From NCBI GenBank assembly GCA_032358255.1, contig JAULBX010029488.1, positions 62,001 through 126,000 of the forward strand: 64,000 bases of DNA, given 5' to 3'. How positions within the stretch are numbered: the first letter of the stretch is position 1; every line of letters starts with the position of its first letter. Both the position numbers and the translations under genes were made by a program. The notes under the pieces are model-generated. The model ran no database searches. It was not told the origin of the DNA and worked only from the letters and a program-made list of their open reading frames with translations. The stretch is from Heterotrichella gracilis. Lineage: Eukaryota > Sar > Xanthophyceae > Tribonematales > Xanthonemataceae. Positions 1,281 to 63,200 of this stretch are shown here, piece by piece.

Positions 1281-4200
1281 CTACCCATCCATGTCCTGAG
1301 GCCCTTGCCCAAGCTCCTGCACCTGCGCCCGCCCTGGCCCCGCCCTGGCCCCCGCCCCCACCCCCGCCAGCTTGTGCAGCAGCAGCGCCACCTCATCGGT
1401 GTCCTTCACGTAGTAGGGCGCCTTGGAGGGCTTCTGGCCAACCGTGCAGGCAAACACCTGCGGGGGAGGGTGTAGGGTTTAGGATTAAGGGTTTAGGGTT
1501 TGAGATTAGTATCCTTGACTAGGAGGGCGCCTTGGAGGGCTTCTGGCCAACCGTGCAGGCAAACACCTGCGGGGGAGGGTGTAGGGTTTAGGATTAAAGG
1601 TTAAGGGATTGTGTCCTTACATAGTAGGTCGCCTTGAGGGAGCCTTGGCCCACAATGCAGGCAAACATAGGCAGGGAGTGCGGGGCTGGGGGGTGTACAA
1701 GGGTGGGGGTTGGCAACCGGGCGGCATGCGCACCACAGCTGAAGAGGGTGAGCATGCGGGCACAGGCGTGGTTGAAAAAGGCGGCTATCACATGTGTGCA
1801 ATGGGGAGGGGAAGGGGGGAGGCACCCATATTGCTACAAGGAAACTGGTGCCTCACCCATCTTCTCACCATGCACCCACCACCACTCCCTCATCCACCAC
1901 CCCCTCAACCCCCCCACGCGTACCTCTGCCGGCATGTGTGGCGAGAAGGTGACATGCTCAATGGCGTCAAACATGTCCTCATCGCTCCGGTCATCTCCCA
2001 CGCACAGCACAAAGTCTGGCGGCGTGGCCCCCGCGCCCGCCCCCGCCAGGATGCGCTCCGCCACGATGCCCTTGGACACCCGCTCCTTGGGTGGCTTGAC
2101 CTCCACGATGGATTGCCCGCTCACCACCTCCACCCCCTCGTTGGCAAGCACCCCCTCAAGGTGGTCAAGCAGCTCCTTGGCCTGCGGGGGGTGGGGTGGA
2201 GGGGTGGGTGGGGGCGGTGGTGGAGGAGAAGAGTGCACTTTGCAACCCAAGCGCATGCCCGACGCGCCCACAGCACTACCGCCGATTAATGCCACGTTGA
2301 CATAAGATTACTGTCAGCATCATTCAAAGATTAAAACCTCCGGTAATGGAGGCCGATATTGGGCAATGATATCAGGTCTATATCAACTGCTGCACCAGCT
2401 CAAAAAATGGTTTGAAGGGGGCATCTGACTGCACCGGCCATTGCTCCAACCCATGTGACCACCACCCACCTGCCAGTGCCCAAAGTCTGGGTCTGCGTCC
2501 CTGTAGTGCCACACCAGCGCGCTCTCCTTGGCCTCGATGCGCGACCCGTCTGTTGACTCTGTGTAGAGCTGCAGAATGGGGCGCACCAGGTCCTGCCAGC
2601 CCATCTCAAGGGGGTCGCGGCACGACCACTCGGGCGAGGAGGGGTGGCGCACGAAGAAGCCGTGCTCCGCGGCGATGCCCAGGCGCTCCTGCAGAAGGAT
2701 TTAGGCGAGGTGGCCAGGTATTCCAAGGAGGCGGGTATGGGTAGGAGGAAGGTGTTTTGAGGTTTCAGGGAAGGGATTTCGTGGTTCAGGACCCATCGGG
2801 CGAGGAGGGGGTGTGCACGAACAAGCACTGCTCGACAGCAATGCCCAAGCGCTTTTGTGGAAGCAGGTATGGTTGTAGGGCTTCGGGTGGGGGTGGGAGG
2901 TTTGCTTGGCGGAAGCCGCCACTGGCGCACCTAGGAAAATCAATCAGGGCTTCAGGAGGGAGATTGCCACTGCCACTGCACATGTACATGCGCTGCCCAA
3001 TCGTCCTACGCCAGGTAGGGTTTTACTAGGGTTCCCACTGAGGTATGTACTTGGATTCCCACACCCAGCTCCTCCCCCAAACTGCTCCGCCACCTCCAGC
3101 CACATCATGGCTTCAGGTTTTAGGGTTTCCGCACGCACCACTCCGCCAAACCACTCCGCCAGCTCCACGCGCGCCCTCCCGCTGATGACGTACACGGTGT
3201 TGTGCGGGTCCGAGGTGAGAGCGCGTAGCGTGTCCAGCAGCTCGGGCGTGGGGTGCGAGGAGATGGAGGAGGGGGGCACAAGGGTGCCGTCGTAGTCCAG
3301 CAGGAACACGCGGTTGCGCGCGCTGCAGGGGTGGGGGTAAGGGGCCTTGAAAAGGTGGCTCAAATGTGCTTTTTGAATGTGCGCACTGGATGCCCTCTCT
3401 GAATGCCCCTCGGATGCGCCGCACGTGCACCCTCCCAATGCATGCCCTGAATATGCGCCGCTGGAAAGTATTAACCGAATGCGCGCCCTGGAAAGGCACC
3501 CACAATATGCCCTACATGCACCCTTCCTCCCACCAATTGCGCATGCCGCCAACACCGGCCTGCCATGCGCAGCCGCGTGAGCCTTGACCAAAATTTCCTC
3601 CAAACCCAACCCTGACGCCAACCTGGCCAATCATGGCCAGCCAACCAACCAACCCTAAACCCAAAACCCTAAACCCTAAACCCAACTCATCTGACCCCAA
3701 CCTGGCCAATCACGCCCAGCCCACCACCTCATGCACCTAACCTCGCCATTTCTCAACACCCCCAACCTCCCACCTTGCGTATGTCGCCAGCACCGCCGTG
3801 ATGTCCAGGCGCCTGAACTTGGATGTGAGCGCAACCGTCCTGAATGAGTCTAGCCCCAGCCCCAACCCTCCCAATATCGGAAAAGCCTATCCCCCACCAT
3901 GCCCAGCCACCCTCATTCACCACCACCCCCACCCTCCAACCCCACCGCCCACCTTGCGTATGCCGCCAGCACCGCCGTGATGTCCAGGCGCCTGAACTTG
4001 GATGTGAGCGCAACCATCCGGAAGGAGTCCAGGCCCAGACCCAGGTCGTAGCAGCGCATGTTGAAGTGCTCCTTGGTGAAGCGCCGCAGGTCAGACACGT
4101 ACGACTGCGGAAAAATGAATATGTGAAAGGGGAGGGGGGAGGAGGGAAGGAGGAAGGGAGGCATGGGGATTGCAAGATATGAATGGATCCAGTCCCAGTC

Positions 4201-7200
4201 CCAGGTCATAGCAGCGCATGTTGAAGTGCTCCTTGGTGAAGCGCCGCAGGTCAGACACGTACGACTGCGGGTGGATAGCATTGTGGAAGCGGAGGGGGTG
4301 AGGGGGAAGGGAGCGTGTGATTTTGAGGGGTGATGTGTGAGAGCAAGAGGAGTGAAGGAGAAGGTGGGAGGAACGGGGGCGATGTGGAAACAAAGGGCAG
4401 ATTTCAGACATTTAAAGTGCTGTCAGTCAGTGCACGTCAGGACCCTGAACAAAATCTTCAGCCCACTTTGCGCCATATTTACACCCTATCAAAACCCTGC
4501 ATAAAACCCTACGCAAAGCCCCCGCCAGCCACCTGCGCCCAGTAGGCCACCGTGTGCTGGCTCAACAACTGCCACACGTAAACCCTACCCCAACCCTAGC
4601 AAAAAACCCGCCACCCACCTGCGCCCAGTAGGCCACCGTGTGCTGGCTCATGTACTGCCACACGTAAACCCTACCCAAAGTCTAGCAAAAACCCTGCCAC
4701 CCACCTGCGCCCAGTATGCTGGCTCACGTACTGCCACACGTAAACCCTACCAAAACCCTGCAACAAACCCTAGCAAAGCCCCCGCCACCCACCTGCGCCC
4801 AGTACGCTACAGTGTGCTGGCTCACGTATCGCCAGTGCTTGTCGTGCCGCAGGCGCCGGTCCGCAGGCGTGAGCTTGATTGCCTTGTAGATGCCGTCAGC
4901 CACGCACTCGATCGACCAGGGGTTGACTCGGATGGCGCCCGAGAGCGAGGGCGAGCAGCCCACAAACTCTGAGACCACCAGCAGGGACTCGCGTGCGTGC
5001 TCCATGTCCGAGCCCTGCGGTGGGGGGTGGGGTTGAGGTGGGGAGTGGGGATGGGCACGAGACAGGGGGCAAGAGGCGTCAGGTGCATTACGAGAAGGTT
5101 TTTTTATATTTGGTGCAGCATGGGAAGGGAGTTTCCTGCCTGTGCTTCTCTTTTCGCCACTCATTCCCAGCAGCCAAACCCATCACCCCATCCCGCCATG
5201 CCGCCCCCACCCCCACGCTCCTCTCATCTGTGCCTGCCACCCCAATCCCCTCCATGCAGGGACCAGCACCGAATCAGGGCCGAGGAGAAAGCCAACCCCC
5301 CACACCTCCGCCACTAACCCCCCACCACCTATCCCCACCACGTACCTCCGGCCCCTGCCGCGCCACCACATACTCGTAGGGCACCAAATTCATCCCGTCC
5401 CTTGTGCAGGTCACCAGCGCCACGTCAGCCACTGAGTAGAAGGCCACCCGCTCGTACAGCGGCACGGGCCTCTCATAGAACAGCACCGGCGTGTATGTGG
5501 CGGTGCCGTACTTGGCTGTGATGCGGTCAACCACCTGGTGCACAAAGGCATGTAGGTCCTGGATGTCCTTGCCGCTGGACCTGCAAAAAGAGGATAAAAG
5601 GATTGGATTTTGCACCACAGCGGGCTGTGTAGGTAAAATTTTTCTGAAGGTTAGTGGTAGGGTAAAGGTTAGGGTATGTGTTGGGGTTGGAGGAAGTGCG
5701 GGGCCAACCACCTGGTGCACAAAGGCATGCAGGTCCTGGATGTCCTTGCTGCTGGACCTACAGGCCAGAAGGGGGGCGGGTCAGAGATTTTATTAGGGTT
5801 GAATTAGGGTTTTTGTTAGCGTGCTCATCCACTGAGGACATTAATCCAGCGCCCGCTCATACACCTCCAGCACCCGCTCATACACCAGGCTCACACACGT
5901 CCAATTGCTGGATGCCCCTGTACCCCACCCGCCCAACTGTACTACACAAAACATCTCCCGACAAGTGCACACTTTCGCCACCCCGTGCCCCCCCCCCACC
6001 ATCCCACTCCACCCACCTTGGCGCGTTTGAGATCTGCACCAGCACCAGCTTGCCCCTCCACTCTGGGTGGTGGTCCAGCACCCGCTCAAACGCCTCCAGC
6101 TTGAGCTCAATCCCCTTGAAGATGTCCATGTCATCCACGCCAAGCAGCACAGTGCACCCCTTGAACTGTGGATGGGAAGAGGAAAAGGGGAGGTGACTAC
6201 CCAGGCATAAGAAAAGTTGACTTTCTGGATCCTGGGGAAAATACATGCATATGGAAATGGGTACCATTGGCCCTTGAAGATGCCCATGCCGTCCCCGCCA
6301 AAGTAATAAGGTGCAGCACTTGAACTGTGGACAGCCATCCCCTCCCCACAACCCCACCGCCTGCAGCTCCCCTTCCCATGTCAGTATCCTCCCATGAGGA
6401 CACGCTGAGCAGGCGCTCTGGCTTGAACCCCCAGTGGCCATGACCGTAACACCTATGCCTGGTTTGCCTGTAGCACTCAACCATCCACCTCCATCACCAC
6501 CGCCGCCACCCCTCACCTGCGCCTGCAGCTCCCCCCTCCTCCACTTGGTATCCTCCCACGAGAACACGCTGAGCAGGCGCTCTGGCTTGACCCCCGTGGG
6601 CATGATCTTGATGCCTATTGTCCGCCCGTAGTACTCCAGTATGATGCTCCCCCGGCTGGTCTGGTGCTCAATGCCAAGCATGCGCGAGCAGCACGACAGA
6701 AAGTGGCGCGCATAGTCGAAGGTGTGGAAGCCTGCAGGAGGGCGTGACTAGGGCAGGTCAATTCCTGGACCATTGCTGGTCCCTGATGCATACCCCGATG
6801 CATCATTTTCAGGCCCTATAATAGCCCCGTCCAGCATCACCTGACCCACACTTGCACAAGCTACGTCCTCCATTGCGCACCACGGGCCCCATCCCCCCTA
6901 CTCCCACCCAATCCAAACCCTCTCCACCCCCATGTAACCCAACCGCACCCACCAAACCTGTGCCATACCCCAACCGCACCCCACCGCACCCCATGCACGG
7001 CCACCCTTTATTCCAACCACGTGCCCCCCCACAATCCAACCCTTGCCACATGCGCCCCCCACCTCCCCACCCTTCCCACCACCCCGCCACGCACCCACTA
7101 CATCTGCGTTGAGCAGCGAGCGCAGCACCTCCTCCCGCTTGGGGAAGGTCCTGAAGATCTCCGATGATGGGAACACCGAGTGCAGGAACAGGCCGCAGCG

Positions 7201-9737
7201 TATGCGCAGGAACCGCTTGCGCAGCAGCGACGGCAGCACCAGCAGGTGGTAGTCGTGGATCCACACGTAGTCGTCGTCCACGCTGATGATCTCAACCAGC
7301 TTGTCCTTGAAGGCCTGGGTAGGATTGGGGTTTAGGGTTAAAGGTTAGGGTTTAGGGTTTAGTGGTCGTCCACACTGACGATCTCGACCAGCTTGTCCTT
7401 GAAGGCGTGGGTAGGGAATAGGGAATGGAGAACAGGGTTTAGGGTTCAGGATCAGGGTTTAGCCGATCCACGCTGATGATCTCGAGCAGCGTGTCCTGGA
7501 AGGCCTGATGGGGTTTAAGAGTCGAGGCTCAGGGTTAAGGGTTGGATTATAGAGTTGAGAGGGAGCTTGAGTGTGTGGGTGGTGGGTTGGGCGTGAAGGC
7601 AGGGGCTGCCAAGGAGTTAGGGTGAATTGTGAGGTGAAGACAAGCACAGCAGGGCTTGGAAATTAGGAAATTGCCTTGACGTAGCCCTGGCCACAACTCG
7701 GAATTAAAGCGCCCGATGACAAGCGCAGCAAGGATAGGGTTTGTGCCTCACAGGTATTAGGGTTTAGGGTTTTTGTACCTTGTTTGCCTTGACGTAGGCC
7801 TGCCATAGCTCGGGGTTGAAGCGGCCGGGGCTGGTTGGGGACATGGGCAGCAGGTAGTGGAACAGCGGCCATAGCTGCTGCTTACAGAACCCTGCAGGGC
7901 GGACAAATGAGATTAAGGACAGCATAAGGTACCAGGATTTTGTAATTCTGCAGGCAAATAGCCCTTGAAACATGCACGGGGATGGTTTTGTGCAGGCCTC
8001 TGCATTTCCCATTTCCTCGATGTGCAGGGCGCGTGCTTTTGCCTGCCTCACTGTTCTAGGAGAACTTTTGGGAGGAGAGGTGCATATGCCTTTTACAGCA
8101 AGCTGTGGCATGGTTTTCAACGGTCTTCCCTTATTCCGAAATGGTTCTCAGGTTGGGCATGCAATCGCTACTTTGAGGTAGAACGGGGCGCACTGGACAT
8201 ACCAAGGCTGTGTTGGCCAGTTGGTTATACGTTAGTACACACCAACTAGAGGTACAAGCCAAATTAGTAGGCAGCCTTGCACCAGCACCGCTTACACCAT
8301 GTATGGGTGTGCCTCCCCCGCCAAGCCAAAGGTCAGGAGGGCGCAAGTGCCTACCTTTGTAGTATTGCTCCTTGAGCTCTGGCCCCAGAAACACTGGATA
8401 GCAGTTGAACAGGCTGAACAGCTCCTGAGATACCATCTGCAGCGCACAAGGGGGTGTAGGGATTAGGGCTGAAAACGCTGAAAGCCCTTGCAAGGGGTTT
8501 AGGGTTTAGGTTTGAACAGGCTGAACAGCTACTAGGACACCATCTGCAGAGCACAAAGGGGGGGCTTGGTGGGCAGCCTGGAGGCGCCAAGGTTGCAGCA
8601 ACATGCCCGTTGCAATGGCGGCAACCACCGCTGATACCAAGTGGGATGCATCCACCAGCACTGGCCACACACCAGGCGTTCCCTGTACTTCTCCAACCTC
8701 CCGCCAGGGACTAGCCACAATGAACCTCTGCCAATAAGGTCTTTCTGGGCAGTTGCATGCCATATGGCACCAGGGTTCCCCAAGGTGGGGTTGGATGAGC
8801 TGGCAGGGTCCACTAGGAGGGACCCTACAGAGAAACCAGGGCGATACAACACCCAGCTGCATTTACTCCATACTACACCACGCAACCCCCGAAGGCAGCT
8901 GCGTGGCGTGCTGATGCTCTCAACCATGTGCTTGCTGTCAGCATGCCGTACGCGTCAGGCGCTTCATCATGCCACGCAATGGGTTGCACCAACTGTGCCT
9001 CCTGAGGGACATGGGTGGTTGTGTTTTCTGGCTGTAAGATGTATGCCACTCCTACCTCCTGCTCTGCTGGCTCTATCTCCACCGGTAGGCATCCCACATA
9101 GAGCACCTCCAGGTCTTCACCCACCCCCTCCTGCAACACCCAAAGAGCAAAATGCTCAAAACCCATGCGCTTTACGAAAGCCACGGTCTGGGTCTGAGTC
9201 GGGTTTTAGAGAACGGGTGCAACGGGAGACAGTGCAGGAAAACAGGGGAGGTTGACGAACCAGGCTATCAGGCATTGGCTAGACATGCCATGCATTAACT
9301 TTGTGTGTCAGCCTTTTGGGCAAGTGTCATCTGTGGCAAACAGGTCTGGTTTTGCTCTGGCTAGAGCTGCACCTCTACCAAGTGCTGCCTACCTGTGCTT
9401 GGGCTATCAAGGCGTCTTCATCCCACTCAAACTCCCACTCGCTGTTGGATATGTCCCTCTTGGCGATGAGAGGGAGGTGGTTTGAAACGAGAATGAGCCT
9501 GCAGGAGAAGCAGCTGTGAGCCAAACCAACTTGATAAAGAGTAAACCTGGGTTTCCCTCCCTTCAGGCTTGCTTACCGAGACGTTTTCCGGCCATCACTA
9601 CTGTCGATGGAATTCCGCGAGGTCCTGTTATTGGCTGCCGAAAAGGAAAGCGGTCCGCCACCCGACAGATCAATGCCCCCAAAGTCCCCAGAAGCGAGGG
9701 CTGCCAAGTTGCGGAACGAGCCCGAAAAGTTCTGCAT
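1281..9737 (-). CDS. TPS: Class II trehalose-6-phosphate synthase/phosphatase, 15 exons
   Basis: The protein (855 aa) joins a GT20 synthase domain (about residues 54-560) to a HAD trehalose-6-phosphate phosphatase domain (about 579-800). Exons, 5' to 3': 9577-9737, 9393-9498, 9056-9130, 8355-8436, 7779-7891, 7095-7314, 6517-6731, 6017-6165, 5346-5580, 4793-5014, 3953-4104, 3139-3322, 2470-2688, 1924-2181, 1281-1457. All phases agree. Visible motifs are RLILVSNHLPL, WIHDYHLLVLPSLLRKRF, FLHSVFPSSEIFRT, DYARHFLSCCSRMLG, GVDDMDIFKG, DGMNLVPYEYV, the phosphatase nucleophile motif LLDYDGTL and VGDDRSDEDMF. An in-frame TGA lies 9 nt before the chosen ATG. Length and order fit plant class II TPS (about 850 aa), which act mainly in sugar signalling and are often weak or inactive as synthases. 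Catalytic activity is not claimed here. Expected location is the cytosol. It is divergently arranged with the exonuclease gene. Confidence 0.96.
1523..1676 (-). repeat. Two echoes of the last TPS exon start
   Basis: Bases 1415-1487, the start of the last exon plus its 3' splice site and intron end, recur almost identically at 1523-1594. A more diverged copy lies at 1611-1676. Both lie in the intron between exons 14 and 15. The copies carry the splice acceptor followed by TTTAGGG-like sequence. Confidence 0.9.
2780..2870 (-). repeat. Echo of TPS exon 13 start
   Basis: This diverged copy of about 2620-2700 holds the 5' part of exon 13, encoding the AEHGFFVRHPSS region, and its 3' splice site. 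It lies upstream of exon 13 in the adjacent intron. Confidence 0.8.
3772..3850 (-). repeat. Echo of TPS exon 11 end and donor
   Basis: This copy of about 3953-4025 covers the 3' end of exon 11 (FRRLDITAVLAAYA) and its 5' splice site. It lies downstream in the following intron. Confidence 0.85.
4190..4270 (-). repeat. Echo of TPS exon 11 start and acceptor
   Basis: This near-identical copy of about 4030-4110 covers the first part of exon 11 (SYVSDLRRFTKEHFNMR) and its 3' splice site. It lies upstream of the true exon. Exon 11 is therefore flanked on both sides by copies of its own edges. Confidence 0.9.
4536..4750 (-). repeat. Three tandem echoes of TPS exon 10 end
   Basis: The last bases of exon 10 (VSQHTVAYWAQ) and the GTGGGT donor at about 4793-4830 recur at about 4536-4590, 4618-4670 and 4703-4745. 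Telomere-like CCCTAA-type sequence separates the copies. Confidence 0.9.
5705..5765 (-). repeat. Echo of TPS exon 9 start
   Basis: This near-identical copy of about 5528-5582 covers the exon 9 start (SSGKDIQDLHAFVHQVV) with its 3' splice site. It lies upstream of the exon in the intron. Confidence 0.9.
6255..6440 (-). repeat. Echoes of TPS exons 8 and 7 in one intron
   Basis: Bases 6260-6325 are a degraded copy of the start of exon 8 (FKGCTVLLGVDDMDIFKG). Bases 6360-6435 are a copy of the end of exon 7 (KPERLLSVFSWEDT). One intron thus carries a copy of both neighbouring exon edges. Confidence 0.85.
7358..7510 (-). repeat. Two echoes of TPS exon 6 start
   Basis: Copies of about 7265-7320, the start of exon 6 (AFKDKLVEIISVDD) with acceptor, lie at about 7358-7412 and 7462-7510. 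TTTAGGG-type repeats separate them. Confidence 0.9.
7660..7735 (-). repeat. Echo of TPS exon 5 end
   Basis: This degraded copy of about 7785-7835 covers the end of exon 5 (FNPELWQAYVKANK). It lies downstream in the following intron. Confidence 0.75.
8512..8556 (-). repeat. Echo of TPS exon 4 start
   Basis: This copy of about 8405-8445 covers the exon 4 start (MVSQELFSLF) and its CTGCAG acceptor. It lies upstream of the exon. Confidence 0.85.
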
Positions 9738-10486: not shown

Positions 10487-13400
10487 ATGCACCAGGTGCC
10501 AGCACATGGCGCAGCCACCAGCCCACCCGCTATGACCAGCGCTGCTCCCTGGAGCCTGGCACCACACCCTAGGCAAGGGTTTCACCAAGCACCACACCCT
10601 GGGCAAGGGTATCTTCACGCACCACAGGGGGGTTGGCGTAGCAACAGGCAGCAAAGGCGGCCGCACCAGCATGCCAGGGGTGTGTGCTACTGCAGTCAGG
10701 TACGGTAACTTAGCTCTCTCTACTCCTCCTGGTACTGTAACCCCCCCGCCTGAACTGCCAATGTTTTACGGATTTGATTCACACCTGTTCCTACCTCAAA
10801 GCTTCCTCTCCCACTACCGCCACCGCCACCGCAGGCCCCACCACCGCCGTCAGCACCCCCACCCCCACCCCCCACCGCCCTCCTTGTCATCGACGCCACC
10901 AACATCGCCTGCATGGCGGCTGCGGACCGAGCCCGCTGGTCCCACGTGAGGGCTGATCTGCACGCCTGCTTTGACCTGTGGGTAGACCACCTGGAGACGC
11001 TGACTCAGCCGGCCAAGGTGGTGGCGGTATTCGATGCAAAACAGGTGGATGCGGCAGCAGGTTTTGGTATTGATACGTTTATGATACTATTAGTGACAGC
11101 ACGGTGTTAGGCGGAAAGCATGTGGGTGGGAGAGGGTGGTGCGGCAGCACACATATTTTGCCCATTGAATCTGTTCAGGCTAGCACATGCTTTGTCCTGT
11201 GGGTTGCCACCTGGAGACGCTGACTCAGCCGGCCAAGGTGGTGGCGGTATGCGATGCAAAACAGGTGGGTGGGTGCGGCAGCAGGTTTCGGAATCAGCAT
11301 GGTGGTGGTGGTGGGTGGAAAGTAGGTGGATGAGAGCGCATGGCGCGACAGGACTTGATTCATCTCTTTTATCATCTTGGTTAGCACATGTGTTGGCCTG
11401 TGGGTAGATGATCTGGAAGTGGTCAGCCGCCCTGCGGGGGCGGTGGCGGTATTCGATTACACGCAGGCGGGTGTGTCAATTCTCCCGCAGCAGTCTTCAT
11501 GTGATGCATCCCCCTTACACCCCAGAATTGCCTGTGGCCTAAAAGGGCTGCGGCGAGCAGTTCATCATTGTTATGGGAAGTCCTGTTATCCCCCACCCTG
11601 CAATTACGCTGGCCAATCAGAGGGGGAACGCCGCACCACCCGCCACTCCGCCAGCCACCACGCCCTCCACCACAACACTCTGCGCCTCTGCACCTCTGCA
11701 CCCACACCTTATAAATTACACCTCACACCCCACAGGCCTCCCGCAAGCAGGCCTCCTCCCCTTCTTACCTCAAGAGGAGGAAGGCCCGACCTGGGAAGGG
11801 ACCACAGCCACACCACCAGCCACGCCACCAGCCGCAGCATCAGCCGCAATCCCTGCCGGCCCTGGCGGCCAGGTTTGAGGGGAGGGGGGGGCTGGCGCTG
11901 GTGGCTGGTAGGGGTTGCGAGGCGGATGATGTCATCGCTGCGCTGTGCGTGGTGGCGGGGGGGATGGTGCCTGATGGGGGTGCGTGGTGGTGGTGGTACA
12001 GGGGGGGAGATGGTGTTTGATGGGGTGGGGGGTGCGGGAGCAGGGGTGATGCTGGAGGGGATTATGTGGTGTGTGATGTGGAGATGGTGTGATGGCGGGT
12101 GGGGTTCGGGGGTGTAGTGGTGTGTTTTGGTGGGACGTGGTGCTGGGATGGGGGGTGGCGGGTGCATGGTTATATTATTACAAAAAAATATGTAGTGTGT
12201 ATATAAGCATGTATATGTCGCCCTCTAGTGTGTATATATAAGCATATATATGCCGCCCCTTAGTGTGTGTTAGGCTGCCTCATGGCATCACATGCTACGT
12301 AAAACATATAGGGGTGGTGCCCGTTTTCCGCGGATGTAGAGAAAGCTGGGTCTAAAAATGTGCTGCCGCTAGGGTGCCTCTGCTGCAAAATAACAGCTGG
12401 TAATTGCTGGTTCTAATCATTATCACTCCCTGATCAGGGTTGTTAATCACCAATCAATCAATGCCATCCCTGTGTGCAGGCCGCATAGTCGTGGCCAGCG
12501 GCGACATGGACATGCGGGGGGTGCTGGCCCCACAGGTGGCATGGCTGCAGGTGCACAAGCTCACTGGCCCATCCAACCCCATGGGGGCGCAGCTGGTGAC
12601 GGCAGATGACTTCCTACAGGGGTTTGGGTTCCCCCCTGGGGCGTACCACGAGTACCTGGCGCTCACTGGTGAGGGTTTGGACTTCTGATTACCTGTTGTG
12701 GGGCTTCCTGCAAAGAGTGATCACTAGATATTTGGTAGTAGTCCATGCCCATTTATACACCATGCCTATCTGGCGCTGTTTGGCAAGGGTACATTGTAAG
12801 TCTTGTATGCTGAAGCTGTAGGTAATGCTTACGACACAGCACAGCACCCCACTTTCCCCCCAGCCACTATGGCCTGCTCCCAATGTTTTAGCAGCAAACC
12901 CTACTTATCAACCCCAAAACCCTAAAATCTAAGCAATGAACCTAGGTCCTTTTTTCCTGGTGAACCCCAGATCCCTCTACCCTAAACCAGGCCCACCCCT
13001 CCTTTGCCCCAGGCAAGAAGGAAGCCAGCATCGGCGGCACTGGCCTGACCTCCACCACTGCCAAGAAGCTGCTGCATCGGTACGGGAGCATAGAAGGGGT
13101 GGAGGGTGCGGGGGAGAGGGGGGAGCTGCGCAGCTGGCCGTTGCAGGTGCAGGCGCTGTTCGATGAGCCACAAGGTATGGTTTTTCTCTAGGGTTTTCTC
13201 TAGGGTGCAGGACCACACGTAGGGTTTGGTGTTGGGTACATACAGCGGCTTGCTGTTGTTCCAGGGGGCTGTGTGCTGTGGGCAATGTTTGGGTGAAAAC
13301 TCTGAATCTTTAACCCTAAACCCTAAACCCTACACTCTTGTGTCCTGCCTCCAGGTAGCACCCCTACACAGGCCCTGACCCAGCTAGAAGACAACCAGAC

Positions 13401-18280: not shown

Positions 18281-18445
18281 TTAAAAAAGCTGGCTATGGA
18301 ACCACAACACGTATGAACGATCATCTGTCCCATCATGCCCTCTGGCCCATCCCCTTCTCAACATCCAGCCACACAGTGCTGCGGCATCCTGGAATGCTGC
18401 GCCTGCTGCCCAATCGGATGCAAACCGCGTCACCCATATTCTGAG

Positions 18446-26508: not shown

Positions 26509-29500
26509 CTATTGTGCCGGCGCCACTTCCCCTCCATTGTTGCTATTGCTCGCGCTCACCCCTTGCGCCTCCCCCTCCACCACCCGTGCCACAATGACGG
26601 TGATGTCATCCTGCTTACCCCCCTGCAAGCACACAGGTGGCGCCATGTCAGCATTGAAGGAGCAACAAGAAGGGATGAGAGAAGAAGGAAGACAGAGGAA
26701 GGGCAGCGCCACCTGGCTGCCCCGCAGCTGGCACAGATTGACGCCGTACGCCACCCCAGGTACTTCAAACCCTACATACCCTCATAAAATCCTGCACCAA
26801 TTGCCCAGCGCCACCTGGCCTTCCTAAAGCGTCATTGTGGCCGGCTTCTGCCACCTAGGGTATGCCCCAAAACCCTACCAAACCTTACACAAACCCACCT
26901 GCAGCTGGCCTGGGGCCACCTGACCACCACGAAACCCTACAAAAGCCCTACACCGACCCTACAGAAACCCTGCAGAAACCCACCTGCAGCTGGCCCAGCG
27001 CCACCTGTCCATCCTTGAGCGTCATGGTGGCCAGCTTCTGCCACCATGGGATGTCAAAGCCCTGTGCGCGCGCCTCAAGGGTGTATGGGGACTCGTAGGA
27101 AGGGTCCTGGCTGTTGTTGAAGGCGCGCTCGGCAATGGTGTGGGCAGCCTGCGTGGTGGGATGGGTGGTGGGTGGGGTGAGGGAGTGGGTGGCCAGGGAG
27201 GGTGGTGGGTGGGGTGAGGGAGTGGGTGGCGAGGGAGGGTGGTGGGTGGGGTAAATTGTGCCTTTTGGCAAGGGACGGGGGGCACATGGGGATGGGGTGA
27301 GCTGCGTTTGATGGCTGATGCATTAGGCCCGCTCTTAAATATCGTGCGCGATCTGCAGGAAAGGTGGTGTGAGGGGATGCGTCGCCAGGGAGGTCGGTGG
27401 GTGTGGTAAGTGGGTGTGGGTGTTGGGGAGGGGGGCTAATGGGGATGGGGTGAGGTGCGCTTGGTGGTGGCAATATACTCCCCAATGCAGACACACACAA
27501 GATGCCATGTATTTTGGGCATAATGATGCAAGATGCGAGGTGCAGATGGCATTTCTCCCACCTGTATCCCAACCCAATATGGAACCCTGATACAAACACT
27601 ATCTGCGTTCACGACCACCTTTAGGTCGTAAGTGGTTTAGGGCTCTATTAATACTTCTACCTGCTTCTTGTTGGCTGCGCCGGTGACCATAGCCAGCATC
27701 TCCTGATCGCAGTCCTAAGCCCTACACCCTAGGGTTTTATAAAACCCTACCTGCTGCTCGTTGGCTGCGCCCGTGACCATAGCCAGCACCTCCTGGTCGT
27801 AGCAGTTATCCCACAGGCCATCGGTGCCAGCCACCACCACATCGCCAGGGAGCACACGCAACCGGAGGAGCTGCGAGGGTGGAGATGGGGGATAAGGGGG
27901 TGGGGCGGGGTGGCGAGGAGGGGAGGGAAGGGTGCTGGCAGGGTATTCAACTACAACCAGGATCCTGGTTTATAATGTCAACACCCCTGGTGCTAGTTGC
28001 AAGGGGGAAAGGGGATGGGTGGGGCGAGTGCCAGTGCCCATGTCGGATGCATACAGTGGCTGCCTGCAATGAATCCCTCTGTCTTTCACAAGCCGCTGCC
28101 TGATGCCCCCCACATGGCATACACATTTGATATATATATTACAGCACACCGGAGCAAAGGCCAGATCAGCAATCAGCCAAGCACAAGCTTGCGCCACCCA
28201 TTCCTGTTCTGAAATTGTACCATTTTTGAATACACATTTTGGTCTAGTGGAACACTCATCGATGTGCGGCACCAACACTGGTATGCTGCGCATTGCATGC
28301 GCTGCAGATGGGGGGCGCCGCAGGGGCGCTGTGCACCCAGAGCCAGCAAAAGCAGCACATGCGTAAGCTGTGCAAGGTCATACTGCTGCAACGCATGGAA
28401 CTACAGGCATTCCAAGCCGAAAACGATATGTTATTGACTAACATTAATTATCATTCACTAACATTTATCTCGCCACATGACTACTTAACACCAGCACGGC
28501 CAGGCCCCTCACCTGTGCATCATCAGCGTTATCTGTGGCCTCGGCGTATTCTGGGAACGCGCCGAATTGCAGGGGGCAGTCGAAAAAGTGCTCCAGCGCA
28601 GGCGACTTGTACAGTACCTGCTGGCCCCGGATCAGCACAAACTGGCTGTCGCCCTGCAAGGGGAGGAACCCCACACAAGGGTCTTCAGCACATGCGGAAA
28701 CCCCACATAAGGTTTTTCAGCACCAGCAGCAGCCCACCCTACTTGTGAACCCTACAAGCTTTGAACCCAGCCCTTAAACCCCTCTACATACTGAACGCAC
28801 CCTATTCCCCAAACCTGGCACCCTCCACAACCCACCAACGCTGAGGCCACCAGCCCCTGTTTTTGTTTTGCCCAGCCAAATCACTGTACACAACATTTGA
28901 CAATGCACCATACACCCACCGGTCAAACCACATAATCCCCCATGCACCTTCCACGCACATACCCCCACCCCAACCACCCACCAGCGCTGACGCCACCAGC
29001 TCCCTGTTCTCCCTGTCCAGCAAAATCACTGTGGCGGTGGTGGAGCCGGGCAGGCGGGTGAGCTGATGCGCAGCATCCATGGCGACCTGCGAGCGTTGGG
29101 GATGGGTGGGATGGTGGTGGTGGTGTGGATGGTGGTGGTGGTGGTGGGTGTGTTTTTCATCACAGAAACGCAATTTAATCTGCAGACATTTGCACACGTC
29201 TCCTGCCATCCAGTGAGCATCCAATCCCCCACGAATGACCCAAATCCCCAAGCAGCCCCCCACATTTCCCCACCTGCACCGGGTGCGCATCATCCTCCAG
29301 GTCCAAAGCAAACCCCTACGGCTCCTCAGCCACAATGGCACCAATCCCTTATCCCCACACACAATAAACCCCCATGACATTTGCACTTCACACGCCATCA
29401 TTCATCCTCTAACCCAATCCCCCCACTGCAGCCCCCCACATTCCCCCACCTGAACCGGGTAAGCATCCTCCTCCAGCTCTGACCCAAAGCCCTTTCCCCC

Positions 29501-37205: not shown

Positions 37206-40200
37206 TCAGAAGAACAGCGCTGTGCGCGCCATTTCCCCCAGTGCCCCCATGATTTCCCTCCGGCTGGTGCCGCACTCCACTGCCAGCTCCTCCTGTGCCC
37301 CCACCGGCAGCAGCCAGTAGAGTGAAAGCACCTCCCCGTCCAACATGCTGTCGCTACCCACCTGGCAAGGGGAGGAGAGGGGCAATGGGGTCAACGGAAA
37401 GGGGAGGAACAGGTGAGGGGGAGAGGGGCAAGTCAAGGGGAAACCATATGGGACAGCAACACTTGACCAGGCCCTAATCGGCAAAAGGTGTTTACAGAGG
37501 GCAGGCTGCATACCTTGCTGGGGCGCATGTAAGTATTGTTTTTGCGTAATGGTGCATTCCTGGTACTCATATATTCAAGTGTGCAGTGCTGGCACGCATG
37601 TAGTTATCTAGCCAACTGATTGTAAGCAACTCCCAAGGTGGGGAGTTGGGGAGTGGGGAGCAAGAGGCGTTACATGGCAGCGGGTGCATGGGGGCCCAGG
37701 TTCGGAGTAATGCCAATGCCCAAAACCCTTTCATACAACTAAATAAAACCCTAACAAACCCCGCACCCTGCACTGACCTGCTTAGTGAAGTGCTGACCTC
37801 CCATCATGCCAGCGGGGGTGCGGGCGTAGCGCCGCCTGCAAAGTGGTGGTGGTGGGGTAAGCACATGTGCTCCAGCTCTATAGCCAGGTCAGCATTGCGG
37901 GGTGTGCCACAAAACCGATCGAGGCTTGTTGAACCACTGCTACCAATGTGGCAGATGGGGACCGACCATTTGTGCCAATTACTGGATTTCAAGCGTGGCA
38001 ATTAGTCCCTAATCATCACATTCATCTCAAATATCTGCCAATTGATTTGACAGTGCACAATAATCATGAGCAGGGTTTGATTCACCCGTTATCCAAACCC
38101 TAGGCATCATCTGAAGGTGTGTGGGTTGAGCCCTGCAGTGTGGTTGACCACCAAACTACAGGGTTTTACAAGGAAACAAAACCCTATCCAAACCCTAGGG
38201 CTTACCTGAAGGCGTGTGGGTTTAGCCCTGCTGTGTGGTTCACCGCCAGCACCAGCCGCTTCTGAAGCGCAGCCAGGGGGGAGTACAATTTCTCATCTGG
38301 CAGGGGCGCCACGCATTCGCACCCGCCCCCCGTGGTGCCAAATAGGGCCGCCTGGCGGGGGGTGCTGTCAAATGTCTCCATTTTGACCCTCAGCACCGCC
38401 AAGGAGCGGTGGCCGGTGAAGAATGCCGACCTGGAGGAGGGTGGGGCATTTTCAGGGGGGATAAGAGAGGATGGACGGAAATTATTAGGAGGAAATGCGG
38501 TGACCCGTGCAGGGGGAGGGGGAAATGCCGTGCGAAGTAGGCCGGAGGATTGGTGTACGCCTGATACATACCAAGCATGCCTTTGACTGCACTAGCGCAA
38601 AACATATTTGTCCTTCATATCGTGATTCCCAAGCCCCCCTTGCCCCCACCAAAAAAGACAAGAAACTCTAGATCTGCCCCTCCCACACCACCTGCACTTA
38701 CTGTGGCATCAGCCTCTGCCCCTTGTAGGACAGCGGGTTGCTGGGCTGGTATGCAAACACCCTTAGGGTTCCGGCTGCCTCTGCGCCCACAAAGCACAGC
38801 TGGCTGCCGTTGATCAGGAACTCAGTGGCCAGGTCAGGGGAGTTGTCAAACTGCTTAGACAGCTGGAGCAGCTGCTTGCCCTCCTCCTGAGGAAGGAGAA
38901 CAACACATTAGGGTTTGGTAAGGGCGCAGGGTTTACAGTGTAGGGTGTTTAAGACTGCTGACAGCTGCAGCAGCTGCTTGCCCTCCTCCTGGGGGGGAAT
39001 AAAATGGAAGGGTTTAGGGTATTGCACCGCTGGTGAGTCTGGTTTCTCAGCCTTTACTTGGCAGTCACATGAGCACAGGCATTACTAGTGTACACTTCAG
39101 GTCTCCCATGCACTTCCACGAACGCCCCTCAGAGGGGTTACAAACCCTTTTTTAGGGTTTGTCAAGAACTCACGGAAACCTAGGGTGTTACCAGGGTTGT
39201 TAAGGGTCTTGCACGCACCACGTATCGCACAAACCGCATGCCCTTTGCCACATCCCCAACCAGGATGAAGTTCTTGACCACGTTGATGGATGTGATGAGC
39301 ACAGGGGCATCGTAGAACGCCAGGCGCACAAGGGAGGTGCCGGACCAGGAGTGGACCTCAAGCCTGAGGAAGGGGAAAAGGAGGCTTGAAGGTGAGGGTT
39401 AAAACATGTGCAGCCAGTTTTTCAGCCCTTTCCAGCCCTACATTCCCGTTCCAAACCCTGCTCGCCCATGTAAACCCTGCACACCCAACCCGGTTACTAT
39501 GTCAGAATACACAAGGTGTATCATCGCAAGCAACTCATAAATGGGTACCTTGCGCCTTTGGCCCCGTAGATACACCCTTTTGCAGTCCATTGAAAACCTG
39601 ACAGCCAACAGTTCAAACCCTAGCAAGAACCCTACCTGTTGCCGGCAGCCAATAGCAGATTGCCCTCAAATGTGGTGAGGGCAGTGATGGGGCCCCGAAA
39701 TTCCCGCACGTAGATTTGCTTGGCACCCCACTGCCCCGCATTTGTGCCCTCCGCAGCAGGGGCCTCCGAGCGCGCCACCTCAAAGAATCGCAATTGCCCT
39801 ATGCAAGGGTAATCCTCGCCTGCGCGTAAAGGGGTGTCAATGTTGGATGCAGGTAGGTGGAGCCCAGGTTGCAGTCTAGTTAATTATCGCATTTTCAAAA
39901 GTACACCACAGCAAGGGCTGCCACCCTCAACCCTACACCCTAAGCTGTAGCTGAACCCTACACACGTGGCTCTACCCTTGGGAGTTACAAGCAAACCATT
40001 TCTGGACATGTATAAACCCACCCACAAATTTCCCCTCCAAAACCTACCTGCGATGAAGGCGCACCCCAGCGCCACCAGCGGCTGCGTGGCGCCACTTGTC
40101 GAGTTTTTGAGGTGCACCGTAGCCACAGACATCACATGCTCGCCAGGTGGCAGCGCGTGGCGCCAGCAGGTGGCCCATTGCCCGGGAACAACCAGGCGCA

Positions 40201-55301: not shown

Positions 55302-58300
55302 TTACACCGGCCCCCATGCGCCTACCGCCCGCACCCCGTGCACGTACCCCACCCACACCACGCTCAGCCACACAGGGCTGGTCAGCGCCAGCATGGCAGC
55401 ATGCCACTGGCTCATGGCCACAGACGCCTCCATGATGGCCCTGGGGGAAAAGAAAAAGTAAATTAAGGATAACATTATATATAATATTACAATACTTATT
55501 GTAATATTATTATCTATTTGAGTACCCGCCACTGGCCCATGGCCACACGAGGAGAACAATGTTAATATATCAATTAATAAGTAGTGATAAGGTGAGTACC
55601 CAAAAGCATCTAATGCGCACAGACGCCTCCATGATGGGGAAAAGAAAGAGACTCAAATTGAGAATCAAAATGAGAATGAGGACACGGATGATGGCGATGA
55701 TGAAAACTAAGTATGATATGTACCAGCAGCAATTCTTACTCAATTTGCGCAAAAAGAAAAGGAGCAGTACATACACCATGCTACACTTAAGAAAAACAGG
55801 TGGGTCAGCGAGTGGATCAACATCAGGCGCACCTGGGGAAGTCCCATTGGTGAACTGCAGATGCGCAATTTAGGATTTAGGGTTTAGGGTTAAGCTCACC
55901 TGGGGGATCCCCGTTGGGGCGGCCCGCCCCCCTCCATCCCCGCAAGGTACGCCAGCCTTGCCCGCCTCTCCCTCATGTACTGCAGCACCGAGGGGACCAA
56001 AAAACCCACCACGCAGTTTGTGAAAGTGATGAGGGTCACGCACGCCTGGCTGCCTCCCCAGGAGTCGAACTCCTCCCCTGGCCCCCCTTCTACCGAGGCC
56101 AGGAGGTGCGCTAGGGTGTTGGCTTCGGTGAAGAGGTGCCGGAACTCTGCCCCGGTGCAGGGCCTGGCACGTAGGGCGATTGCGCAGTTGTGGCTGTTGA
56201 GCCCCGCGGCTACCAGCACAAGGCCCACCTGAAAAGAAGAAATAAAATTAAGAGAATAGTGGAAATAAATAATGACAGGGGGGTTGTACTTGAGGGACAT
56301 CCGTTTAATACAGGAAAACCCTACCACAGACCCTACAGCCTAAACAGAATCCCCAATACAAGCCCCACCTGTCCGACCAGGAAGAGCTCCAAGGGGGGAT
56401 TATACATGAGCGGCAGGATGACTATCCACGTGGCGATGGCTGCTGTGTTGAAGGCAACAGTGGGGCCGCAGGGGCGCTTGAGGCTGTACGCCCAGTATGG
56501 CCCCATGAGGCGGCCTAGGTAGTAGTTGAGGGTGTAGGTGGCGACCTGGGGTTGAGAGGAGGGCTTAAGGCTTAGGGTTTAGGTAGTAGTTGAGGGTGTA
56601 GGTGGCGACCTGGGGTGGGAGGAGGGTTTGGGGTTTATAGTTTAGGGTTTAGGTAGTAGTTGAGGGTGTAGGTGGCGACCTGGGGTGGGGAAGAGGATTT
56701 AGCAGGGAGAGAGGGGGGATGAACAAAGGGTGCAGGCGGCAAGCCGTGTGCGTTGGGGGGGTATGGCTTCGGCATTGGTGTATGCGCTTATCAATAAACC
56801 ACTGCCACACGCTGGGCCTGCCTAGGCCACTGTGGTAGGGTTTCCACTGGACCAGCAGGGTTGTGCGTCCGACCCATAGGGTTTTGCATTGGACCAGTAG
56901 GGTTTTGCATGAGACCACCACCAATCTTTTATACCGAGCATATACCAGAGTCCAGGGTTGAGGGTTTAGGGTTTAGGGTTTCGCGGCGCACCTGCCGCCA
57001 GTCCCTGTACCTCGCACACACCAAGGTATAAGGTTTAGGGTTTAGGGTTTAGGGTTTCGCAGCGCACCTGCAGCCAGTCCCTGTACCGCGCATACACCCT
57101 TGGGCAGTACACGTTGAATGCCGTGAGTAGGAACAGGTAGGCGGCATCTGCCACGTGCACCACAGCCGCCCACTTGAAGCGTCGCTCCTCTGACCCACCG
57201 GCGTACCTGCACCCCGGTGGACGGGGTCTTAGAACTCTACGATATAAACATTTTTTATTAATATAACTTTAGTGTTTCATGTTCTTTAATATTTGAATTT
57301 CAGGCCATTAGACAACCCCGAACTATGATATGTAGGCGTATAACTATCCCCAGGATTCAGGTTATGAAAGACAAGACCATCTCCCGACTCACCACCCACC
57401 ATCCCCCAACACTCACTTGGGTGCGGCGCCACCCTGCATCTGAGCAGTGTCCAGGAAAGATAGAGCTGCCAGGAGGTTGCTGACAACACACATATGAGCG
57501 CGTGAGTGTGGTCCTTGCCCCCCCCACCACCCATGACGCATGCACCATCCCCCATTATGTGCCCAACTCCCACCACCCACCACCACCACCCACAACATAT
57601 GCACCATCCCCCTTCATGGTTCCATCCCCATCCCCCCACCACTCACTCTGGTGCGGCTTCCCACTGCCTCCTAGCTATGACCAGGAACAGGAGCGCTGCC
57701 AGCAGGTTTCCTGCGGCGTCCGTCCATCGCAGGCGCGCAACCCTTAGGGTCTGGAACCGGGCCTCAAGGGAGGGGCTCTCAAGGGACAGGTACAGGGAGG
57801 TCTTGAAGCGCTGCGGGTGGGAGGTGGGAGGGGTGTGGGGGGGGTACTGTCTCGAGGGGTGGGTACTGCAAGGGGTGGGTACTGTGCAGCGCAGGCGCGC
57901 AACCCTTAGGGTCTGGAACCGCATTTCCATTGACAGGTAGAGGGAGGGGTGTGTGGGAGGAAAGCACCGCCACAAGGGCGCCAGCAGTAAGGCAGGTGGT
58001 CACGTGGATACAATGGGAGTACTAGATGGAACAAGGGGACACGTTTATATCAACGGTGCAGGAGAGATGCTGATGCACCCCATGCGCCTTGCCATCACAG
58101 CTACTTGCCCAAACTTGACAAGGATCTTGAAAATCACGCTGAGATAAACCTTGACGAATGGCTTGGCAAGCAGATCTGCACAGTCTGAAGCCCAGATACG
58201 GAGCCCACAGGGGTCTGCTTCGGTGGTTGTTGCTTCAAACACGCATGCATGCATATGCACCCAGTGAACCTGCAAGGTAAGTTGCTGGTCGAGTGCCACT

Positions 58301-60209: not shown

Positions 60210-63200
60210 TCACAAGTCCTCGTGCCCATACCGCACACTGGATGAGCTGCCACCGTTTTTGCCCTCCCCTCCCAACCGACCATAGTACGCCCCCTGAGGG
60301 CTCTCCGCCTCCATCGCCCCCTTGGCGCCCGAGGTGTCCAGGGGGGTGAGGCCATACTGCTGCTGGATGGCGTTGTAGTACACCTGGTAGTCCACATCCT
60401 GCACATGGAAGGGAGGAATGCAATCAATAAAAAGGGGTGGCGGGTGGGGGAAAGGGTGATGGCGTTGTAGAGCACCTCTGTAGTCATCCTGCATAGGGGG
60501 GAGGGGGTGGGGGGGTATTGGTCAACTGAAAGGGTGGCGGGTGGGGAATAAATGGCGTTGTAATACCGTACACCTGGTAGGTTGATATCCTGGGGAGGGG
60601 GAAGGTGGATTGGGGGCTGGTGCGGATGGTCATGTAGTACACCGGCTGATGGAAACTTTCAACTGGAATACTGATCCTTGGAAATTACCCATGCGCACCA
60701 ACCCTACATCTTGCACATCCACATAAACCTGTGTTCTCCGCACGGGCCCACACATGGGCTGCTGTGCGGCATGTCATGTTCGCAACTACCGGCGGCCAAA
60801 AATAGATGTGCGGCAGAGGTCAAACCCATTCCTTGACTCAGCATCCCACCTGCAGCAGGTGCGCCTCCTCTGTCATTGCCCGCATGTAGTACACCCCGTT
60901 CAGCATGGCGCAGCGCATGCATCGCTTGAAGGCCATCACCCAGCCGTCGTGCAGGGACCACGGCACCGAGATGAGCCACCAGGAGAGGTTCTTGCAGCAG
61001 TAGGCGGGGTGGCGCAGGAACCTGCGGTGGGATTTAAGGTTCAGGTTTTAGGGTTTAGGGTTCAGGTTTAGGGTCTAGGGTTGAGGCACCGAAATGAGCC
61101 ACCAGGTGAGGTTCTTGCAGCAGGAGGCGGCGTGGCGCAGGAACCTGCGGCAGGGTGTACTGTTTAGGATAAGGGTTTATGCACTGAGATGAGCCATCAG
61201 CTACGTTCTTGCTGCAGTAGGCGGGGGTGGCGCAGGAACCTGCGGCACGTTTTAGGGCTCAGGTTTAGGGTTTAAGGTGTAGGGTTTAGGCACAAAAAAT
61301 GGGCAAGCAGGACAGGTTGATTAGGTTCCTCAGATAGCAGTGTGGAGCAGGAACCTGCAATACACAAGGTTCCACAGTGGCACCCGCAGCTGCTGGTACC
61401 ATCCTCCACCTCACCCTGGGTGGTGTCAGTGGCACCCGTGCGCCAGGCGCCTCTGGCGCATACGCTCCCTCAACCCCCATGGCAGGATCCAAGTACGGGT
61501 TTAGGGTTTACATTGACTAATTTCAGAAACCAGCATTCAGTGACAATGGCATAAGCCCTATCATCCATAGCCCCGATTTCCCCCACCCCACCCACCTGTA
61601 CGGCCCATTCGTCACAATCCCGCGGTTGGTCAGGTTGGAGAACCTCAGCCCAAAGCTGATGGTGGCCCACACACATATTTTCCGGTCAACACCCCAAGGA
61701 TATCCTGGCAAACCTATTCCCAATCAGTGACACTTCACTGGCCATTCCCAACCCATCCCACCCCCACACCTCCCTACCCCATCATCCACCCACCTGTACG
61801 GCCCATTCGTCACGATCCCGCGGTTGGTCAGGTTGGAGAAGCGCAGCCCAAAGCTGATGGTGGCCCACACGTACACCCCAGTCAGGCCCAGGATCAACAG
61901 CGCCCAGGCCTGCTGGATCCATGCTGGGTGCTCGGGAAGCCATGTGTCCCAGTTCATGTCGCTGGCATATGCCAGGTAGTTGGGCTCGATCACCCCCGCC
62001 CAGAAGGGCTGGTAGCACAGGATGGCCACTATCCAGCCAAAGAGGGTGGGTTCGGTGGAACGGACGTGGGAGTCGAACAGCCTGCGGGCAAGGGGGTGGA
62101 GAGGGGGTTAAATGAGGCGCAGAGAAGAGGAGGAGAGGGTAGAGTAGGGGTTGGGTCTTGCGAGTTGGCTTAGGGTTGGACAGATGGAGAAGGGACTCGG
62201 TAGGACATAGGCACCATCCAGCCAAAGAGGTGGGTTTGGGGGAGCGGACGCGGGAGTCAAACCGCCTGCAGGGTGAGGGATTATTGTGTCAAGCGGGTCC
62301 CTACGGTAAGACATAGGGTCCGGCATTGGCAATAGGTAAACATATGAAATAATGATAATAGGACCTTTACTAATACCCTTGAGATAGGGTTCAGATGTAA
62401 GGTGAGGTCTGTGTGCGTGCTATGTGCAGTTGCAGTTGCAGCTACATAGCCAGGCGCACGGAAGAGCAGGGGCATCTCAGTATTTGCGACTCACACCCAG
62501 TCTGCACATGCAATACCATGGGATGCGCATAACACTCACTTGCATGCCAGGCTGTAGCCAAAGCACACTCACGGCATCCACCAAAACATCATATCATACA
62601 AATGCACGTGCTTAGGTAGCCTACCCAATCTGCACGTGCACGCGCATTTTTGCACAGGCGACATCTGCACATGCAATACCATGGGATGCGCATGGACTCA
62701 CTTGCAGCCCAGGCTTACCCAAAACACACCCAAGCTACATCCACCACAACACATCATTGTCGTACAGACGGGCTAGATGGCCTACATGTGAACAAATTGC
62801 ACGTGCGACATCTACGCATATGGGATTTTTTGGTGGACACAGCACTCACTTGCATGCCAGGCTGTAGCCGAAGCACACCCATGCCACATCCACAAAGAAC
62901 AGGGTGTCATACAGGAAGCTGTACAGGCGCATGAAGGACAGGTCGCCGTCCCAGTACAGGTGCCAGATCTCAACCACATTGTTCTCGTAATCCTGCAAGG
63001 ACGGCATAATGATAAACGCGTTTATCTTCCATTACTATTAGTATTGGTAAAACGATATCAACTACTTTACAAACAAACAAAACTTGGCACATTACCCCCG
63101 TAATCCTGCAAGGGAGCGGTATACATACTAGTATACAACAAAATCCAACAAGTGCTCATAGTCTGCAAGGAAGGGGTATAAATACGAACTATTTTACCAA

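What the first reader, a model, noticed from the sequence alone, without database searches (positions are those of the whole stretch)
1281..9737. Exon echoes: introns filled with copies of neighbouring exon edges and splice sites
In TPS, at least 8 of 14 introns contain 30-90 bp copies of the adjacent exon's start or end. Each copy spans exactly one splice junction, and the best copies are nearly identical (1415-1487 against 1523-1594). The same pattern recurs in PBCP, CPSF160, the exonuclease, the multi-span protein and the methyltransferase-like gene. Copies lie on the same side as the edge they duplicate, in the same orientation, with varied divergence. This looks like an ongoing process of tandem duplication across exon-intron borders that grows introns and plants decoy splice sites. 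Tandem duplication is a known route to new introns; such a systematic intron-growth pattern is not one I know.
Basis: partly seen in the sequence, partly recalled or inferred. Interest (0 to 1): 0.88.

Follow-up and report, generated by a model that had tools for sequence, protein, structure and literature searches.

The report
Exon-edge echoes with telomere-like patches
In a green alga's genome, many introns carry decaying copies of the neighbouring exon's edge, joined on through filler that is often telomere-like and starts a dozen or so bases past the splice site, which suggests that breaks at exon borders were repaired sloppily and made introns longer.

Summary
In 226,963 bp (window plus 17 other loci of the same 68.5-Mb green-algal assembly) 119 direct self-matches within 1 kb face 1 inverted; 82 contain a predicted splice edge, shuffled mean 41, maximum 58 of 1000. 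Of 82 sources in multi-exon genes 62 span an exon edge and 8 are intron-only; fair random placement gives 31.9 and 26.1, and detection power (250 and 211 of 300) does not explain it. TPS has echoes in 8 of 14 introns.

Three facts go beyond plain tandem duplication. Copies take about 49 bp of exon but 13 bp of intron (medians). In 29 of 43 records the spacer is unrelated to the flank beyond the echo. Outward TTTAGGG-type words are over-represented in spacers (odds ratios 7.8 at acceptors, 4.5 at donors). Echoes decay as unconstrained DNA (codon positions 7.7, 7.4, 17.6%).

Best reading: breaks just outside exons, repaired with duplication of the exon edge plus filler, often telomere-like, which lengthens introns. 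Splice use, ancestral empty sites and the cause of the border preference remain open.

The parts
1285..9737 (-). TPS gene (trehalose-6-phosphate synthase/phosphatase), 15 exons: 9577-9737, 9393-9500, 9056-9130, 8353-8436, 7779-7892, 7099-7314, 6517-6732, 6016-6165, 5346-5580, 4793-5014, about 3955-4107, 3139-3321, 2470-2688, about 1921-2181, 1285-1457
   Evidence: tblastn of homologs
1399..1667 (-). Acceptor edge of exon 15 (ends 1457) with two echoes, about 1509-1565 and 1611-1667, and telomere-like spacer; 1415-1487 identical to 1524-1596
1467..1508 (+). Telomere-like spacer (AGGGTGTAGGGTTTAAGATTA x2), reading outward from exon 15
2621..2853 (-). Acceptor edge of exon 13 (2621-2687) and echo 2787-2853
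3711..4043 (-). Donor edge of exon 11 (copy 3898-4043) and echo 3711-3864
4028..4310 (-). Acceptor edge of exon 11 (copy 4028-4150) and echo 4188-4310
4505..4834 (-). Donor edge of exon 10 (from 4793) and an array of three echoes with CCCTAAA-like spacers (period about 86)
5525..5762 (-). Acceptor edge of exon 9 (5525-5585) and echo 5702-5762, 93% identical, unrelated flanks
6113..6331 (-). Acceptor edge of exon 8 (6113-6172) and echo 6271-6331
6358..6618 (-). Donor side of exon 7 (6520-6618, starting 3 bp inside the edge) and echo 6358-6456
7268..7543 (-). Acceptor edge of exon 6 (to 7314) with two echoes and GGGTTTA-like spacers
8405..8561 (-). Acceptor edge of exon 4 (8405-8454) and echo 8512-8561 with GGGTTTA spacer
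10967..11294 (+). Echo pair in the exonuclease-like gene (10967-11070 / 11188-11294); spacer 11071-11187 has one match in the assembly, itself
26791..27802 (-). Echo families in the PP2C-like gene: 26791-26926 / 26956-27045 and 27657-27712 / 27747-27802
38090..38994 (-).
56516..56696 (-). Three-copy echo array in the multi-span protein gene
60962..61290 (-).
61588..61870 (-). Young echo pair, 96.5% identical over 85 bp, unrelated flanks; spacer 61673-61785 has one match in the assembly, itself
62002..62272 (-). Echo pair in the same gene (62002-62088 / 62188-62272)

Best explanation
Exon-edge echoes are scars of break repair. Shown: in most families the copied block runs from a variable point some 25 to 100 bp inside the exon to about 5 to 25 bp past the splice site; the copies are direct and mostly separated by other sequence; that sequence carries TTTAGGG-type repeats pointing away from the exon in about half the families; the echo decays as unconstrained DNA. 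Inferred: DNA breaks in a staggered way near the exon border; both overlapping ends are kept, so the edge is duplicated; filler is added at the join, often by telomerase or a telomerase-like activity extending the G-rich 3' end that leaves the exon; the ends are joined. The protein survives because the splice site still attached to the whole exon is used. Each event lengthens the intron by about 100 to 200 bp, and unequal exchange between copies can make arrays.
For: Edge concentration: 62 edge and 8 intron-only of 82 sources, fair null 31.9 and 26.1, its maximum 46 and minimum 14 in 1000, with similar detection power: 250, 211, 199 of 300 for edge, intron, intergenic. Exon share longer than intron share in 48 of 59 families, window 20 of 25, other loci 28 of 34; random placement 115 of 246. 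Of 22 families at >=88% identity, 20 reach at most 26 bp past the splice site. At acceptors the flank beyond the echo has the composition of an ordinary intron end and the spacer has not; spacers are also lower in GC than the far flanks.466 against .522, p .0015. Outward telomere-like words in spacers: acceptors 17 of 31 against 32 of 237 echo-less edges, donors 11 of 28 against 30 of 239 (p 9e-7, 9e-4); inward words 1 and 7, not enriched (baselines). Of the 28 tracts 22 begin within 30 bp of the splice site. In L024 a donor reads exon, ten intron bases, TTTAGGG repeats, exon-edge copy, with three echoes in series.
Against: 31 of 59 families have no outward telomere-like word. At donors alone the outward bias is weak (11 outward, 7 inward). 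14 of 43 spacers resemble the flank beyond the echo, and spacers as a set resemble their own far flank more than those of other loci (12.05 against 7.84, p 1.6e-4), so part of the set is ordinary tandem duplication with a longer intron share. G-minus-C skew does not separate spacer from far flank (p 1.0 and 0.24), and at donors the composition argument is less clear. Nothing here shows why breaks would fall at splice borders. No empty site could be seen. At acceptors selection should have favoured longer intron shares than those seen.
Confidence: 0.46

Rival explanations
1. Random local tandem duplication everywhere, filtered by selection: copies inside exons are purged, copies across a splice border are tolerated, copies inside introns fade twice as fast.
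For: Pairs are direct and local, 113 of 119 within 300 bp. 14 of 43 spacers resemble the flank beyond the echo. Third codon positions differ twice as much as the others, as the fading argument needs. With the fair null the edge excess is about 6-fold in odds, less than I first reckoned.
Against: Intron-only sources are too few (8 against 26.1 expected, minimum 14 in 1000) although simulated ones are nearly as detectable (ages drawn from detected pairs). Breakpoints are not symmetric about the splice site (48 of 59). Does not predict outward telomere-like words.
Confidence: 0.24
2. Templated insertion: a break inside the intron is patched with a copy of the nearby exon edge taken from DNA or nascent RNA; the spacer is old intron.
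For: Young copies end sharply on both sides in unrelated sequence. Echo acceptors without their own upstream region would be harmless decoys (inference).
Against: At acceptors the flank beyond the echo, not the spacer, has the composition of an intron end. Echoes stay near the same edge (median distance 146 bp). Telomere-like words sit in the spacer near the splice site. Exon segments away from an edge are rarely copied: of 6 partly exonic pairs 4 end within 12 bp of an edge.
Confidence: 0.2
3. A mobile element (introner-like) inserts near exon edges with a long target duplication.
For: Spacer plus duplication has the layout of element plus target duplication.
Against: The two spacers searched match only themselves in the assembly; spacer-to-spacer matches are telomere-like words or mirrored records in the 25 of 44 displayed; exon shares of 23-104 bp exceed the 3-9 bp target duplications described for introners.
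Confidence: 0.04
4. Echoes are functional duplicated exons kept for alternative splicing.
For: Splice dinucleotides are mostly kept; a permissive gene finder of 59 as exon.
Against: 30 of 31 indels break the frame, and first and second codon positions are not spared beyond what a conserved working copy explains. A solved prolyl-tRNA synthetase aligns around the echo exons of L024.
Confidence: 0.03
5. Assembly artefact or fused haplotypes.
For: Source reads were not available.
Against: Divergence spreads from 0 to over 25% with a codon-position pattern; the pattern recurs on many contigs.
Confidence: 0.03

Closest known systems
Interstitial telomeric repeats inserted at double-strand breaks (mammals; PMC2246262, PMC7215372)
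   Same: Telomere-type repeats at a join, with random filler and sometimes direct duplication of the target, ascribed to staggered breaks (passages seen).
   Different: There duplications were few (6 of 130 in rodents, 4 of 25 in primates, 3 of 66 in horse plus 2 complex ones) and positions were taken as random; here the cases lie at exon borders. My search could only see cases with a duplication.
Short tandem duplications from break repair in plants (Vaughn and Bennetzen 2014, seen only as described in a section of PMC7407515; Schiml et al. 2016 recalled)
   Same: Local duplications of tens to hundreds of bases, partly with other insertions, ascribed to asymmetric nicks.
   Different: No exon-border preference or telomere-like filler known to me; not checked in those papers.
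Intron gain by tandem duplication of a proto-splice site (Lehmann et al. 2010, PMC2891723, abstract and one section read; Hellsten et al. 2011 recalled, not held)
   Same: Duplicated exon sequence becomes intronic and splice signals are copied.
   Different: There a new intron is born; here an existing intron grows and the copy lies on the side of the edge that it duplicates.
Introners (Gozashti et al. 2022, PMC9860276, passages seen)
   Same: Many events per genome that add intron DNA.
   Different: No shared element sequence found in what was searched, no short target duplication.

Membership tests
Interstitial telomeric insertion at a repaired break | Telomere-type repeats of the species at the join | tested here: inconclusive
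   28 of 59 families have outward words. TTTAGGG is the prevailing type in the sample, 35 doublets against 1 and 1 for two others, but chromosome ends were not read.
Interstitial telomeric insertion at a repaired break | Ortholog without the insertion shows the intact break site | not testable with these tools
   No relatives are held for this assembly.
Interstitial telomeric insertion at a repaired break | Direct duplication of target as from a staggered break | tested here: met
   119 direct against 1 inverted pair within 1 kb.
Break-repair tandem duplication of plants | Local direct duplication of 10-1000 bp | tested here: met
   Median match 83 bp, 113 of 119 within 300 bp.
Break-repair tandem duplication of plants | Copies contiguous, or separated only by filler | tested here: inconclusive
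   Spacer unrelated to the flank beyond the echo in 29 of 43 records, related in 14.
Introners | Many sequence-similar copies across the genome | tested here: not met
   Two of two spacers searched match only themselves; most spacers were not searched genome-wide.
Introners | Short (3-9 bp) target duplication or terminal inverted repeats | tested here: not met
   Exon share 23-104 bp in 22 young families; inverted repeats not tested, and not all introners have these marks.
Intron birth by duplication of a proto-splice site | Duplicated halves lie at opposite ends of the new intron | tested here: not met
   78 of 92 edges with an echo have it outward on their own side; the other 14 were not examined one by one.

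The most novel reading that the evidence does not exclude
This alga has a splice-border-directed mutational process: DNA breaks form preferentially a few bases outside exons, perhaps where the outward strand turns G-rich or where splicing and transcription meet, and telomerase patches the exon-bearing end. The repeated cycle of edge duplication plus telomeric filler would be a so far undescribed, systematic way in which introns grow and acquire spare splice sites.
Probability: 0.28. Interest if true: 0.87.

Novelty: new variant of a known kind. Interest (0 to 1): 0.73.

Why it matters
Intron lengthening is usually put down to transposons and random duplication (general knowledge, not searched). 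Here about 9% as many bases as the sampled introns hold lie between working edges and their echoes, with datable copies that decay like a clock and often with a telomere-like mark of direction. That makes intron growth, decoy splice sites and telomerase in repair directly testable in one organism, and warns that gene finders will annotate echo exons.

Tried and rejected
Lariat-stop idea (reverse transcription stopping at the branch point sets the intron share of acceptor copies): dropped, since some acceptor copies reach only 4-6 bp into the intron and donors behave much alike. Large ancient tandem duplication with fast intron decay: dropped as the general case, since the youngest pairs also lose similarity just past the splice site, although 14 of 43 spacers do resemble the far flank. 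Selection for harmless decoys as cause of the short intron share: would not explain donors. Motif at the inner breakpoint: none seen by eye. Echo exons annotated in other algae: 1 of 120 TPS homologs has a near-repeated 8-mer. Naming the species through rbcL: no match in the assembly; nearest TPS is Myrmecia bisecta, 71%. The T-rich sense strand of acceptor spacers may be selection for splicing rather than mechanism.

Literature: ten searches; among the listed titles and abstract starts I saw none that described exon-edge copies in introns; lists were capped, most papers were seen as listing only, and subscription journals are largely missing.

Full report
What was examined. The window is bases 62001-126000 of contig C695 of a 68.5-Mb, 903-contig assembly. 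Its TPS protein is closest to Myrmecia bisecta (71%), Coccomyxa and Micractinium, so the organism is probably a trebouxiophyte green alga; it could not be named. Nineteen further stretches were fetched (a twentieth did not exist); two with 35-36% GC (L011, L015) were left out, and L011 has the dense long reading frames of a bacterium. The working set is the window plus 17 loci, 226,963 bp, two of the loci on the window's own contig. It calls some echoes as exons, which is a limit.

The pattern. Self-alignment of the window gives 44 pairs within 3 kb, all direct. In the whole set 119 pairs within 1 kb are direct and 1 is inverted. Of the 119, 91 contain a predicted exon edge, 10 are intergenic (7 of them one array in L010), 9 intronic, 6 partly exonic, 3 exonic; at 88% identity or more, 32 of 35 contain an edge. 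With splice edges only, 82 of 119 against 41.0 on average after circular shifts of the gene models, maximum 58 of 1000. Of 98 pairs inside multi-exon genes 80 hold an edge and 9 are intronic, against 46.1 and 33.0 when the pairs are moved at random in their genes. Per source (82, binned by 60 bp) edge 62, exon 12, intron 8, against 31.9, 23.9, 26.1, with at most 46 edge and at least 14 intron in 1000 rounds. Simulated duplications with the observed lengths and ages are found in 250, 211 and 199 of 300 cases for edge, intron and intergenic sites; the ages were drawn from detected pairs, so very old ones are under-represented.

TPS and a second checked gene. Homologs of TPS match each exon at full strength and most echoes as weak second matches to the same residues. 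The two best copies are identical over 73 bp. L024 holds a prolyl-tRNA synthetase: the best solved relative aligns to residues 117-402 and 461-656 of the predicted protein and skips 403-460, the echo exons (one alignment viewed).

Anatomy. 92 edges have an echo, 78 of them on their intron side; merged where pairs overlap, 59 families, 31 at acceptors and 28 at donors. The exon share is longer than the intron share in 48 of 59 (medians 49 and 13 bp), in the window 20 of 25 and elsewhere 28 of 34; random placement gives medians of 42 and 42. Of 22 families at 88% identity or more, 20 reach at most 26 bp past the splice site; the other two reach 128 and 152 bp. The edge-to-echo distance has a median of 146 bp. 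Even very similar pairs end abruptly: the 96.5% pair at 61588 and 61786 has unrelated flanks. In 43 single-copy records with a spacer of at least 30 bp, 14 spacers resemble the flank beyond the echo at z>3 and 29 do not. As a set, spacers resemble their own far flank more than those of other loci. So some events are longer tandem duplications. Two spacers searched match only themselves in the assembly.

Which side is old. At acceptors (22 records) the first 20 bases beyond the echo have the composition of echo-less intron ends (outward G .352 against .337, C .180 against .187), while the spacer beside the working site differs (A .339, C .109). At donors the contrast is less clear, and G-minus-C skew separates the two nowhere (p 1.0, 0.24). 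The old intron end therefore seems, at acceptors, to sit with the echo. Selection for splicing may also shape acceptor spacers.

Telomere-like filler. TTTAGGG occurs 0 times in 59.7 kb of exon, 141 times in 96.2 kb of intron, 37 times in 71.1 kb between genes. Outward words occur in the spacers of 17 of 31 acceptor and 11 of 28 donor families, against 32 of 237 and 30 of 239 echo-less edges; inward words in 1 and 7, not enriched. The orientation contrast 28:8 against 62:54 has p .011; at donors alone it is weak. Of the 28 tracts 22 begin within 30 bp of the splice site. In L024 the donor at 3304 is followed by ten intron bases, TTTAGGG repeats and the next edge copy, three echoes in series.

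Decay. Over the families with an exon share of at least 20 bp, echo and exon differ at 7.7, 7.4 and 17.6% of first, second and third codon positions, and 30 of 31 indels are not multiples of three. That fits an unconstrained echo and a working copy that changes mainly at silent sites. Splice dinucleotides remain in 31 of 38 donor and 37 of 40 acceptor echoes. Of 78 best pairs 5 are under 5% divergent, so present activity is unproven.

Reading. I take the events for break repair near exon borders in which both overlapping ends are retained and filler, often telomere-like, is added on the exon-bearing 3' end. An outward direction at donors and acceptors is what 3'-end extension would leave; intron ends are G-rich outward on both sides (first tenth G .339, last tenth C .347), which could favour telomerase (its preference for G-rich ends is recalled, not tested). 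Mammalian work describes telomeric insertion at breaks with random filler and target duplication (passages) and plant work local duplications after asymmetric nicks (section of a review). For the border preference I found no precedent in ten searches.

Limits. The gene models are mostly ab initio; two genes are checked by homology. The sample is 0.33% of the assembly and not strictly random. No transcripts, no reads, no relative. Events without a duplication are invisible to this method.

Noticed in passing
all predicted introns of 100 bp or more in the sample, including the window: Introns run from G-rich to C-rich on the sense strand: first tenth G .339 and C .198, last tenth C .347 and G .197.
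   Followed up: partly
window 1415-1487 and 1524-1596: 73 bp are identical in both copies although the longer match around them is 83% identical; suggests later exchange or conversion within the array.
   Followed up: no
window 14990-31908: Several gene models share a repeated protein segment (around ATVALAxPSH..CQELSxE.W..LRSLLPPLPE), and 14990-16277 matches 18335-19584 at 75%: a local gene family, not named.
   Followed up: no
window 49508-53243: Galactosyl_T domain gene whose C-terminal part carries a 48-bp coding tandem repeat at 52979-53128.
   Followed up: no
L011 (contig C1) and L015 (contig C100): 35-36% GC stretches; L011 has dense long reading frames, so the assembly probably includes bacterial contigs. 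L015 was not looked at further.
   Followed up: partly
L010 6438-6928: Intergenic tandem array that supplies 7 of the 10 intergenic near pairs.
   Followed up: no
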